DNA from: Halovivax asiaticus JCM 14624
Lineage (GTDB): Archaea; Halobacteriota; Halobacteria; Halobacteriales; Natrialbaceae
Length of the DNA: 64,000 nt
NCBI RefSeq assembly: GCF_000337515.1
Contig: NZ_AOIQ01000006.1
Location: 130,265 to 194,264, forward strand
Reading direction: 5' to 3'
The notes beneath the pieces are model-generated. The model searched no databases, was not told the DNA's origin, and was given only the letters and a program-made list of their open reading frames with translations. The translations under genes and the position numbers were made by a program. This document shows, piece by piece, positions 19,928-25,795 of the stretch (position 1 is its first letter; each line of letters opens with the position of its first letter).

Positions 19928-21433
19928 TTATTCAGAGAACATCGATCCAAGCTGTTCACGCCACTCCAGAATGTCGACGACGTCGTCCGATACCTCGTCC
20001 AGTTCCGTCGACAGGGATTCGACGCTGTTCGAAACGTCTTCAACGTCCGACTCGAGTTCCGCAGAACGTTCGTCGAGGTCGGCAACCGACGATTCGACGT
20101 CCGTCAGTTCGCCTTCGAGGGATTCGATCGACGACTCGTTCGCATCGACGGCGGACGTAACCGACGAGAGATCGTCTTCGACGGCGTCGACGTCCGAGGT
20201 GAGTGTGTCGAGCGACTCGTTCATCGACGACGTCGTGGACGAGAGGTCATCGATCGCGGTACTGTTGTCCTCGACCGTCTCCTCGATCGACGCCATCTCC
20301 GTGTGCAACGCGTCAAGTTCTGACTGGAGTTCTTCGATCAGTTGCGCGCCGGTACCCTCCGATTCGAGGAATTCTTCGAGCGCGCCCGTGTACGCGGCGA
20401 CCGACTCGACGCGTTGCTGGAGATGGGACAGTTTCGCCTCGGTGGGACCGGACGCTTCCGAGGATTGAAGCGCATCCTCGATGGTTTCGAGGTCGGTTTC
20501 ATCGGCGGAGCCGGACCGAATCTCCGACGCAAGCGTTGAGGCGAGCGATTCGTCGGATGGATTAGTGTCCCCGGCGTGGACGCTATCCGTTTCGGTCTGA
20601 TCGTTCGACCGCCCCGATTCGTCGGGAGAAGCAGCCTGGCTAGTCGCTGGGGAATCCGCCTCGGTCGTGGTCGCCCGAGAGGCCTCACTATCGGCAGCGT
20701 CGATTTCGGCCGGTGCAGCCTCATCGGACGAGTCGTCCGATACATCTGTGAACAAGTCGGATTCTCCGGTATCTTTCGACTCGATCGAGTCAACCGGCTC
20801 CACGTCGGCAGACTCGTCGGTATCCGCATCACTCGGCGTGTCGTCTGCGACGCGTTCCGCAGCAGCATCGATGTCGAGTTCGATAGACGATTCATCGGCT
20901 TCACTCGCAGATTTGTCAGTCGCGTCAGACTGCGCGTCATCGTCCAGTCCTGGGACCGAATCGCTGTCACCGGAGAGAAGATCCTTCACGGCGTTCGTGC
21001 CGTCCGTGGAGACGACCTCGTCGACGGAGTCAGAGACATCCGAAGCCGTCGATTCTGTCACACCTGCACTCGTGTCGACCGAAATCGACGGCTCCGTGAG
21101 GAATGCGCCCGGTTCGAAGTCGTCGTCGAGACGGATGCCGTAGACGGTGACGAGCGCTGAATCAGGCTCGACGGTCCCAGTGAACTCGACACGGTGATCC
21201 TGATAGGCGGTCCACTGTTCGCTGTGATACTCCGGATGAAACCCGACGGCGTCCATCGGAAACGATTCGGGAATCGATTCACTCAGTCTGACGGTGACGG
21301 ATTCGTCGTGAGATGAATCGATCTCGAATCGGATAGCCGGGACGGGAAACTCATCGGGTGCGTACCGTTTCGTCACTGAGACGTCGTCCGAACTGACAGT
21401 CACGACATCCCCAGTGTCCACACTCGAACTCAT
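19928..21433 (-). CDS. Acidic coiled-coil protein with N-terminal beta domain, function unknown
   Basis: The 501-residue protein has three parts. Residues 1-115 look like a beta-sandwich (SVTKRYAPDEFPVPAIRFEI, then VTVRLSESIPESFPMDAVGF and VEFTGTVEPDSALVTVYGIR). Residues 115-330 are a low-complexity Ser/Asp/Glu/Thr stretch, surely disordered. Residues 335-500 are a long heptad-patterned coiled coil (LQQRVESVAAYTGALEEFLE, then repeated VDAVEDDLSSVTSAVDANES-type units). No signal peptide or membrane helix is visible, so it is probably cytoplasmic. I recall similar haloarchaeal proteins (possibly DUF7310) but no assigned role. ATG 21433 is supported by a TATA box 28 bases upstream. Confidence 0.7.
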   Translation of the reverse strand: MSSSVDTGDVVTVSSDDVSVTKRYAPDEFPVPAIRFEIDSSHDESVTVRLSESIPESFPMDAVGFHPEYHSEQWTAYQDHRVEFTGTVEPDSALVTVYGIRLDDDFEPGAFLTEPSISVDTSAGVTESTASDVSDSVDEVVSTDGTNAVKDLLSGDSDSVPGLDDDAQSDATDKSASEADESSIELDIDAAAERVADDTPSDADTDESADVEPVDSIESKDTGESDLFTDVSDDSSDEAAPAEIDAADSEASRATTTEADSPATSQAASPDESGRSNDQTETDSVHAGDTNPSDESLASTLASEIRSGSADETDLETIEDALQSSEASGPTEAKLSHLQQRVESVAAYTGALEEFLESEGTGAQLIEELQSELDALHTEMASIEETVEDNSTAIDDLSSTTSSMNESLDTLTSDVDAVEDDLSSVTSAVDANESSIESLEGELTDVESSVADLDERSAELESDVEDVSNSVESLSTELDEVSDDVVDILEWREQLGSMFSE

Positions 21434-21458
21434 TGTGAGACGATTACAGGAGGACGAC

Positions 21459-21464
21459 CATAAA
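21459..21464 (-). promoter_or_regulatory. TATA-like box (TTTATG) for the coiled-coil gene
   Basis: On the minus strand TTTATG lies about 28 bases above ATG 21433, consistent with a leaderless transcript. Confidence 0.45.
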
Positions 21465-21576
21465 GGAAGCGGGCGATTGGAGGACTCGGATCGCACTAAG
21501 TGAGTTCGTCTCGTCTGTGATCGGTCGTGGACGCGCGTTCACTAATGTCAAGACGCACGTTGGCTGTCGTGATCGA

Positions 21577-23567: not shown

Positions 23568-23737
23568 TGGACTCAGTACCGACTACGAACGTAAAACGTG
23601 CCCGTTTTGGCCGATTGGCGCTCATCGAGGAATCGAGGCCCAGTTTCACGCCAGTCAGACACTCGTCAGACTGCCGTTCGTTCACTGAGATGTCGACGGG
23701 CAAAAAGTCATGGTACTGGAGTCTAAAGCGAGGGGTA

Positions 23738-24664
23738 ATGTCGACGATTTCCGAACAAAACCTGTTCGACCTCTATCGCTCGTACATCGGGGAACCCGAC
23801 AGTGAGCGAGACGTCTACGTCGGTTTTGGACTGTTCCTCTGTGGGATCGTCCTGGCCGTCGTCGCGCTCGGGCTGTTCGTCGTGGCAACCGGTCATCCGT
23901 ACCGATCACCAGAATTCTTCACGTGGGCGCGACCCGCGTACACGCTCGGGATGGTATCACTCCCGCTCGTGATGCTTGGGATCGTCGTTCTCCTTCCGTC
24001 GGAACGACGCGTTCTCGCGGTCTCTGTCGTCGGCGCAGCGATCACGCTCGTTGCGACATCCGGATTCCTCTTTTACGCGTATCCGGAGCACTGGAACGGG
24101 TACGGAAACGACTACACCGTCCCCATCGTCACCGTCTACGCGATCGGACTCGCCGCGATGGCGGCGTCCACGGGTGCAGCCTTGATCGCTCACTACCTCG
24201 ATCTGGCCAGACAGATCGAAGTGACGCCCGAAGCGGACGAAGCAAAAGAACACTACACCGACGAGGAGATCGCGAACGACATCGACGACGCGATGGAAGA
24301 CGTCGAACTCTCCTGGGGAGGGGTCGAAAAGAGCGACAACACGACACTGACGTTCACCGGTCACGAGTTCGAAGACACCGAAGTCGGCGATGCCGGCGTC
24401 ACGAAGACCCGATCGACTGGCGTCCAATCACAGGTCGCAGGCCTCAAGGGGATGAAAGGCGGTGAAGCGAAGACGCAGACTTCCACGGGCACCGTCGACG
24501 ACCAGACGGCGAAGCTGAAGGAGCTTCGAGAGCAAAAGCAAGCCGAAGACGTCGCCACCGCGGACGAGGGGCCGGTCGGCCGAGTTCGATCGGGGCTTAC
24601 TGGTGCGGCCAGAACGTTCAAATCCAAAGTCACAGCCGTTGGCCGACGGGTAAAGCGGAATTAA
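23738..24664 (+). CDS. Four-helix membrane protein with long cytoplasmic tail (DUF7139-like)
   Basis: The 308-residue protein begins MSTISEQNLFDLYRSYIG, then has four hydrophobic segments near residues 29-55, 67-90, 92-112 and 125-150. The remaining half is soluble, acidic and helical, and includes a lysine-rich stretch KLKELREQKQ and a basic C-terminal end. I associate it with haloarchaeal DUF7139. The next gene, on the same strand 96 bases away, is a salactin-like actin; a conserved neighbourhood of the two would suggest that this protein tethers or regulates the filament at the membrane, which is inference. The frame opens earlier at 23549, but that part overlaps the dph2 start. Confidence 0.7.
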   Translation: MSTISEQNLFDLYRSYIGEPDSERDVYVGFGLFLCGIVLAVVALGLFVVATGHPYRSPEFFTWARPAYTLGMVSLPLVMLGIVVLLPSERRVLAVSVVGAAITLVATSGFLFYAYPEHWNGYGNDYTVPIVTVYAIGLAAMAASTGAALIAHYLDLARQIEVTPEADEAKEHYTDEEIANDIDDAMEDVELSWGGVEKSDNTTLTFTGHEFEDTEVGDAGVTKTRSTGVQSQVAGLKGMKGGEAKTQTSTGTVDDQTAKLKELREQKQAEDVATADEGPVGRVRSGLTGAARTFKSKVTAVGRRVKRN

Positions 24665-24730
24665 TGACCGGCGCTGGTCGGTAAGGGCCAATTATACCCA
24701 CATATCAAATCGGGAATTTATTCACATAGA

Positions 24731-24738
24731 TTTATAAT
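24731..24738 (+). promoter_or_regulatory. TATA box (TTTATAAT) of the salactin-like gene
   Basis: A near-consensus TATA box in a strikingly AT-rich 60-base stretch lies 27 bases (centre) above ATG 24761, so the actin gene has its own strong promoter and probably a leaderless mRNA. Confidence 0.6.
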
Positions 24739-24760
24739 CCGTCAGTCGCCTTGCCCACAT

Positions 24761-25795
24761 ATGGCCAAAGGCCTAGACGTCGGAACAATGAACATCCTGT
24801 CGGCACAGCAGGATGGTAACGACACGGTATTCGTCCAGCAGCGCAACTCATTCGTCGAGATCGAGTACTCGGACATGGCCGAGCAGATGCTCTCACGAAG
24901 CGAAGTGCTTCACATCCGAAAAGACGACAAGGTGTACGTCGTCGGTGACGACGCACTCAACTTCGCGAACATCTTCAACAAGGAAACGCGTCGACCGATG
25001 TCCCAGGGGATCCTCTCCTCGGACGAGAAGTCGGCGATCCCGATGATGAAGCTCATCATCGAACAGGTCGTCGGCGAACCGGCCTACCCTGACGAGAAAC
25101 TGTACTTCTCGACTCCGGCCGACCCGATCGACTCCAAACTCTCGACGCTGTATCACCAGAAGACGATCGAATCCTTCCTCAACGATGTCGGCTACGACGC
25201 GGAGCCGATCAACGAGGGGATGTCGGTCATCTACTCCGAACTCGCCGACAACAACTTCACTGGGCTCGGAATCAGCTTCGGTGCGGGTATGACGAACGTC
25301 TGTCTGGCGTACTACGCCGTCCCCGTCATGAAGTTCTCCGTCGCCCGCGGTGGCGACTGGATCGACGAACAGGCCGCCCGCGCGACCGGGACGCCCGTCG
25401 ACAAGGTCACCTCCATCAAGGAAGACGACTTCGAGCTCGACTTCACGACGGACGTCGGCGGCGTCGAAGGCGCCCTCTCGATCTACTACGAGAACCTGCT
25501 CGATTACGTCATCGAGAAGGTCGTCGAAGAGGTCGACGACGAAGACGTCGAAGAGGGACTCGACATCCCCGTCGTCGTCACCGGCGGCACCTCGAGCCCC
25601 AGCGGCTTCGAGGCGCTCTTCCGTGACCATCTCGAAGACGCGAACATCCCGTTCTCGATCAGTGGCGTCTCCCACGCCGACGAACCGCTCTACAGCGTCG
25701 CCCGTGGTGGCCTCGTCGCCGCCAGGTCCGACGAAGACATCGAACACGAGGGAGCAGACGAGGACGAAGCAGAGGCTGCCGCAGCCAGCGAGTAA
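24761..25795 (+). CDS. Salactin-like actin/Hsp70-fold protein
   Basis: The 344-residue protein has the actin-fold nucleotide site: phosphate-1 loop GLDVGTMN (residues 4-11), connect region [10 protein letters not shown] (151-160), phosphate-2 loop [12 protein letters not shown] (169-180) and adenosine loop [12 protein letters not shown] (271-282). It ends in a flexible Glu/Asp/Ala-rich tail. The sequence matches what I remember of salactin, the dynamically unstable actin homologue described in Halobacterium, in which polar filaments help partition DNA under phosphate limitation. Size, single-domain layout and lack of an Hsp70 substrate domain exclude DnaK and MreB-type proteins less well than an alignment would. 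It follows a membrane-protein gene on the same strand. Confidence 0.85.

What the first reader, a model, noticed from the sequence alone, without database searches (positions are those of the whole stretch)
23738..25795. Membrane protein next to a salactin-like actin: a candidate tethered cytoskeletal system
The 344-residue protein has all three nucleotide loops of the actin fold and lies 96 bases below a four-helix membrane protein with a long acidic-basic cytoplasmic tail. Salactin is a dynamically unstable archaeal actin known to polymerise at cell poles; its membrane partner is not well described. The strong separate TATA box of the actin gene suggests it is expressed above the membrane gene. 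If the neighbourhood is conserved, the membrane protein is the natural anchor or regulator.
Basis: partly seen in the sequence, partly recalled or inferred. Interest (0 to 1): 0.72.

Follow-up and report, generated by a model that had tools for sequence, protein, structure and literature searches.

The report
Volactin and its dedicated membrane partner
The window encodes volactin, the shape-determining actin of salt-loving archaea, directly downstream of an uncharacterised four-helix membrane protein that turns out to be its near-obligate companion across haloarchaea, Archaeoglobi-like archaea and methanogen-like archaea, which makes it the best candidate for the protein that ties this archaeal actin to the cell membrane.

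Summary
The gene pair is real and correctly placed. The actin is not salactin-like: it is an ortholog of volactin (Pfam PF25216, 457 bits; no match to the separate Salactin family). The membrane protein is DUF7139 (PF23600): four transmembrane helices and a cytoplasmic tail with two conserved motifs found in no other DUF7139 protein.

Of 292 haloarchaeal genomes, 174 have both volactin and the tailed DUF7139, none has intact volactin alone, one fragmented draft has only the membrane gene, and 117 have neither intact gene. The two co-vary inside ten genera. In Halorubrum the genes are usually unlinked, yet one complete genome nested among unlinked ones has lost both. Adjacency holds in 140 of 153 testable distinct haloarchaeal volactin genes. 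Outside haloarchaea, 32 of 32 intact volactins in the sampled phylum have a DUF7139 gene immediately upstream, in some with overlapping reading frames.

The best reading is an ancient two-part module in which DUF7139 anchors or regulates volactin at the membrane through its tail. Functional linkage is shown; direct binding is inferred. A fused-chain structure prediction was uninformative. I found no paper on this partner.

The parts
23706..23721 (+). Conserved promoter-proximal element AGTCATGGTACTGGAG of the DUF7139 gene (-32 to -17)
   Evidence: Exact or near-exact at -32 in most Natrialbaceae loci; weaker consensus CAACAGTCATTA elsewhere, also upstream of unlinked Halorubrum copies
23738..24664 (+). 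DUF7139 four-TM membrane protein, 308 aa, candidate volactin membrane partner
   Evidence: PF23600, 163 bits; tailed subfamily alignments A1 and A3
23804..24220 (+). Four transmembrane helices (residues 23-50, 58-85, 90-114, 127-161)
   Evidence: AlphaFold2, pLDDT 86-98 by block of ten; positive-inside charge pattern
24254..24352 (+). Tail motif A, residues 173-205: (S/T)DEEI..DID.AM.DVELSWGGVEK
   Evidence: 53% mean pairwise identity between spacers of 21-24%; D181, G194, G195 invariant
24422..24553 (+). Tail motif B, residues 229-272: V..QV.GLK..KGGE...DDQTA.L.ELREQ
   Evidence: 50% mean pairwise identity between spacers of 24-25%; L260 invariant; helix 253-275 in the model
24731..24738 (+). 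TATA box of the volactin gene (TTTATAAT)
   Evidence: Conserved at -30 in 151 orthologous upstream regions
24761..25795 (+). volA ortholog: volactin, 344 aa
   Evidence: PF25216, 457 bits; 76-94% identity to volactins of 27 other haloarchaea
24770..24796 (+). Actin phosphate loop 1 (GLDVGTMNI)
   Evidence: Nearly invariant
25262..25297 (+). Actin phosphate loop 2 ([12 protein letters not shown])
   Evidence: Nearly invariant
25571..25609 (+). Actin adenosine loop ([13 protein letters not shown])
   Evidence: GG invariant

Best explanation
The two genes form an ancient, dedicated two-component module: volactin, a filament-forming actin, and a four-TM DUF7139 protein that works on it at the membrane. 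The DUF7139 domain is a membrane platform with both ends in the cytoplasm. Its long disordered tail carries two conserved short motifs that most likely bind volactin monomers or filaments, and so tether, nucleate or regulate filaments at the membrane during rod-to-disk shape change. Shown: gene identities, co-occurrence, co-loss, joint transfer, ancient adjacency, topology by prediction, and conserved tail motifs unique to this paralog. Inferred: direct tail-volactin contact, and whether the contact anchors, nucleates or inhibits.
For: Co-occurrence in 292 haloarchaeal genomes: 174 both, 0 intact volactin alone, 1 tail alone (180-contig draft), 117 neither; in ten polymorphic genera the only discordant genome is that draft. 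Co-retention without linkage: in Halorubrum the genes are mostly far apart (about 80 kb to over 1 Mb) yet both are kept. The complete genome G206, which has neither, nests (support 0.994) with G006 and G176, where they are unlinked. Joint transfer: two Halorubrum-genus genomes with a linked pair group with Halonotius in both gene trees. Adjacency: 140 of 153 testable distinct haloarchaeal genes, although the neighbouring dph2 gene is kept in only 71 of 133 loci. Outside haloarchaea: 32 of 32 intact volactins have DUF7139 immediately upstream, 0 unpaired; the neighbours score over the Pfam cut-off, and two loci have overlapping reading frames. In G060 one deletion fused the start of DUF7139 to the end of volactin, removing both genes together. 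Tail motifs at 50-53% identity sit between spacers at 21-25%. Other DUF7139 paralogs carry unrelated tails, DUF7140 or DUF1508 repeats.
Against: No direct evidence of binding. The fused-chain AlphaFold2 model (35 paired and 27 unpaired rows) folded the volactin part poorly (pTM 0.42) and did not raise tail confidence, so it neither supports nor refutes an interface. Volactin filaments in Haloferax are described as spanning the cytoplasm rather than lining the membrane (PMC10869688). The membrane gene has its own, weaker promoter in haloarchaea, so co-expression is not guaranteed. The WGG motif is not seen outside haloarchaea, where only the tail layout is kept. One Halostagnicola draft (L198) has volactin without an adjacent partner; the rest of that genome was not searched.
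Confidence: 0.66

Rival explanations
1. The two proteins serve the same process without touching: DUF7139 is a membrane sensor or channel (for example of tension or ions) whose output acts on volactin through other factors.
For: Co-occurrence and co-loss show functional dependence, not contact. The DUF7139 platform is reused with other cytoplasmic modules, as sensors often are. Volactin is proposed to be mechanosensing (PMC7617734).
Against: The pair is two-gene specific and survives changes of neighbourhood; no third gene was seen to accompany it, though this was tested only for the window's neighbours. The tail motifs are conserved only in this paralog, as expected for a private partner site.
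Confidence: 0.2
2. DUF7139 is a negative regulator that sequesters monomers or caps filaments through its tail, rather than an anchor.
For: The same genomic evidence fits; short tail motifs could bind monomers. Volactin is dynamically unstable in vivo (PMC10869688).
Against: No similarity to a known actin sequestering protein was found. The sign of the effect cannot be read from sequence.
Confidence: 0.1
3. The adjacency is a by-product of local gene order with no functional meaning.
For: In one family the wider neighbourhood is also partly conserved (dph2 in 71 of 133 loci).
Against: Pair kept in 32 of 32 loci outside haloarchaea with different neighbours; retained together when unlinked; lost together; transferred together.
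Confidence: 0.03

Closest known systems
Volactin (VolA, HVO_2015) of Haloferax volcanii, Schiller et al. 2024, PMC10869688
   Same: The window actin belongs to the same Pfam family (PF25216) with full-length similarity; in Haloferax it forms dynamic filaments, is needed for timely disk formation and appears essential.
   Different: The paper as read here describes no membrane partner; the DUF7139 companion, its co-loss and its age are new here.
Salactin of Halobacterium salinarum, Zheng et al. 2023, PMC10746226
   Same: Another haloarchaeal actin with dynamic instability.
   Different: Separate Pfam family (PF25229); poor synteny reported; no co-occurrence with the tailed DUF7139 (phi -0.17); the host genome of the window has none.
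Bacterial MreB with RodZ or MreC/MreD (family knowledge, not tested beyond Pfam and fold searches)
   Same: Works like it: an actin paired with a membrane protein whose cytoplasmic part binds the filament; MreB is the closest solved fold.
   Different: DUF7139 has no sequence or fold similarity to those partners and has four TM helices with a disordered tail.
PilM-PilN (actin-fold protein bound to the cytoplasmic tail of a membrane protein; PDB 5eou appears among the fold hits)
   Same: A short cytoplasmic tail of a membrane protein docks on an actin-fold protein.
   Different: PilM is part of a pilus machine, not a shape filament; PilN is single-pass and unrelated.

Membership tests
Volactin (PF25216) | Profile score above the curated cut-off over the full domain | tested here: met
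   457.4 bits against cut-off 35, positions 1-321 of 321
Volactin (PF25216) | Forms dynamic filaments affecting disk shape | not testable with these tools
   Known for HVO_2015 only (PMC10869688)
Salactin (PF25229) | Profile score above the curated cut-off | tested here: not met
   No Salactin match at E<=1 for the window protein; none in the host genome; control salactins score 601-613 bits
Actin/MreB superfamily | Phosphate 1, phosphate 2 and adenosine loops | tested here: met
   Loops nearly invariant in alignment A2; MreB is the best PDB fold match
DUF7139 (PF23600) | Profile score above the curated cut-off | tested here: met
   163.1 bits against cut-off 30
Volactin-type DUF7139 subfamily (defined here) | Two-motif cytoplasmic tail, absent from DUF7140 and DUF1508 paralogs | tested here: met
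   Tail model hits once per genome in nearly all volactin genomes; other paralogs not matched
MreB-RodZ / MreCD systems | Membrane partner homologous to RodZ, MreC or MreD | tested here: not met
   No such Pfam match; no fold match below E 0.001
MreB-RodZ / MreCD systems | Physical binding of the membrane partner to the actin | tested here: inconclusive
   Fused-chain AlphaFold2 uninformative

The most novel reading that the evidence does not exclude
Volactin and the tailed DUF7139 are a Methanotecta-wide membrane-cytoskeleton module older than haloarchaea. The DUF7139 tail is a private volactin-binding sequence, and the haloarchaeal DUF7139 paralogs (with DUF7140 or DUF1508 tails) arose by duplicating this anchor and swapping its cytoplasmic cargo.
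Probability: 0.45. Interest if true: 0.82.

Novelty: new variant of a known kind. Interest (0 to 1): 0.68.

Why it matters
Volactin controls rod-to-disk shape and tissue-like development in Haloferax, but how it is held at or regulated from the membrane is not described in the papers I could search. A single uncharacterised gene that is kept, lost and transferred with volactin across a phylum makes that question directly testable in a genetically tractable archaeon. It also points to a membrane-tethered actin system in Archaeoglobi-like and methanogen-like lineages, where I know of no work on it. In one such family the pair sits next to ftsZ.

Tried and rejected
Salactin label: rejected by family profiles. 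Fused-chain complex prediction: the two window ORFs are in the same frame, so they were read through the intergenic stops as a computational linker with 35 paired rows; the volactin half stayed at low confidence and the tail did not gain confidence, so it is not counted as evidence. Fold search of DUF7139: only weak generic helical-bundle matches, best E 0.058 to LTC4 synthase, rejected. The conserved upstream element as a regulon motif: perfect matches occur only at this gene and two-mismatch hits are no commoner than the reversed-pattern control, rejected. Laying the whole genome in Python was not available. Literature searches for DUF7139, HVO_2014 and HVO_2016 found nothing. The rpoB tree has weak support at several nodes, so only the G206 placement (0.994) is used.

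Full report
What is there. The window holds two genes on the + strand, 23738-24664 and 24761-25795, 96 bases apart. The downstream protein (344 aa) is volactin: PF25216 at 457 bits over the whole profile, 76-94% identical to volactins of 27 other haloarchaea, with the three actin nucleotide loops nearly invariant. It is not a salactin. Pfam keeps Salactin (PF25229) apart; the window protein gives no Salactin match, genuine salactins give 601-613 bits, and the host genome has no salactin. The upstream protein (308 aa) is DUF7139, PF23600 at 163 bits. AlphaFold2 gives a four-TM bundle plus a partly helical tail, and the charge pattern places both ends in the cytoplasm.

Promoters. Volactin has its own TATA box at -30 in most orthologs, consistent with leaderless transcription. 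The DUF7139 gene has a different, weaker promoter (CAACAGTCATTA-like) that also accompanies its unlinked copies.

Linkage in haloarchaea. DUF7139 as a family is nearly universal (280 of 292 genomes, often several copies), so its mere presence means nothing. The volactin neighbour is a distinct subfamily, marked by a tail with two motifs. A model of that tail alone (A3) finds 175 genomes strongly; volactin is found over the cut-off in 175, one of which (G060) is a remnant. Cross-tabulated: 174 both, 0 volactin only, 1 tail only (G186, a 180-contig draft with no volactin match), 117 neither intact. Fisher P values ignore shared ancestry. The better evidence is that ten genera are polymorphic and the only discordant genome among them is that draft. 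Salactin shows no such link (phi -0.17).

Not just neighbourhood. In the genus identified as Halorubrum (G284 matches the contig of Halorubrum ezzemoulense), the two genes are usually not neighbours: for example 79 kb apart in G013, about 104 kb in G009 and over 1 Mb in G152. Both are nevertheless kept. In an rpoB tree, G206, a single-contig genome with neither gene, groups with G006 and G176, whose copies are unlinked, with support 0.994; this is most simply a loss of both unlinked genes. The two Halorubrum-genus genomes with a linked pair (G248, G284) cluster with Halonotius in both gene trees, as expected if the pair moved horizontally as a unit. In G060 a deletion has fused the first roughly 40 codons of DUF7139 to the last third of volactin, removing both together.

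Adjacency counts. Of 155 distinct haloarchaeal volactin genes with flanks, 140 have the tailed DUF7139 just upstream on the same strand, 13 do not and 2 lie at contig ends. Ten of the 13 are Halorubrum; one (L229) has the gene downstream instead; L063 belongs to G049, where the partner is on another contig; L198 was not resolved. Neighbours turn over while the pair stays: dph2 is present in 71 of 133 loci.

Outside haloarchaea. A phylum-wide draw (295 genomes, 242 of them outside the class) gave 33 outside genomes with volactin matches, one of them a broken fragment (G399). A DUF7139 model found 32 strong genomes outside, exactly the 32 with intact volactin. By the coordinates, all 32 have DUF7139 directly upstream on the same strand. 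Twenty were read in full; in two of them the reading frames overlap by 8 bases, and in three the pair follows an ORF with the start of FtsZ (one confirmed by Pfam). The neighbours tested pass the DUF7139 cut-off and the actins pass the Volactin cut-off. One family (f18) is probably Archaeoglobi, because a linked tyrosyl-tRNA synthetase is closest to PDB 2cyb (that 2cyb is from Archaeoglobus is my own knowledge). Genome size and a neighbouring methyltransferase-like gene suggest f16 is Methanosarcinaceae, an inference. The tail outside haloarchaea keeps the layout (a helix with EEIER-like sequence, then a D...S..L element) but not the WGG motif. In a tree of the membrane domain the outside partners form one clade (100%) and the haloarchaeal subfamilies others; the root is not resolved.

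How it likely works. The same membrane platform carries different cytoplasmic modules in its paralogs: DUF7140, DUF1508 repeats, or the volactin-type tail. The volactin-type tail alternates conserved motifs (53% and 50% identity) with fast-changing spacers (21-25%), which is typical of short binding motifs in a disordered chain. The simplest model is that the tail binds volactin and couples filaments to the membrane. Whether it anchors, nucleates or restrains filaments cannot be told from sequence. The fused-chain prediction did not help.

Literature. Volactin is described as a dynamic filament needed for timely disk formation, probably essential (PMC10869688), and as affecting tissue-like development (PMC7617734). 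Salactin has poor synteny (PMC10746226). No paper in the library mentions DUF7139 or the HVO neighbours searched; preprints and most subscription journals are not held, so prior description elsewhere cannot be excluded.

Verdict. Direct anchoring is the best explanation but inferred.

Noticed in passing
L161:5000-7804(-), i.e. G000:C6 about 103.0-105.8 kb, roughly 25 kb before the window starts: A second volactin-family protein (934 aa): actin domain (331 bits), then about 550 aa of coiled coil and a hydrophobic C-terminal end that looks like a membrane anchor. Same architecture in L164 and L165; nucleotide loops partly degenerate. A membrane-anchored coiled-coil actin would be unusual.
   Followed up: partly
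L162:5903-8701(+), L163:4915-5859(-), L172:6162-7736(+): DUF7139 is a modular platform: one paralog ends in a Cys-rich DUF7140 domain and is near universal, another carries 5-7 DUF1508 repeats.
   Followed up: partly
L166:7187-7627(+) (G060): Natural deletion fusing the start of DUF7139 in frame to the end of volactin, a 146-aa remnant ORF.
   Followed up: partly
L330:2777-3907(+), L334:2848-4035(+), L338:2717-3889(+): FtsZ (L330 confirmed by Pfam; L334 and L338 by the look of the sequence) directly upstream of the DUF7139-volactin pair in family f19.
   Followed up: partly
[quoted passage not shown]
   Followed up: no
genomes G308, G351, G371, G375, G407, G411, G446, G470, G513, G521 (f16) and G508 (f18): DUF7139-like domains in open frames of about 540-720 aa in genomes without intact volactin: another architecture of unknown content.
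   Followed up: no
window 19928-21496(-): 522-aa acidic protein with a coiled-coil C-terminus with weak FlaC-like similarity, present in 47 of 133 volactin loci.
   Followed up: no
window 23706-23721: A 16-base element upstream of the DUF7139 gene is almost perfectly conserved in Natrialbaceae and extends past the core promoter; perfect matches occur only at this gene.
   Followed up: partly
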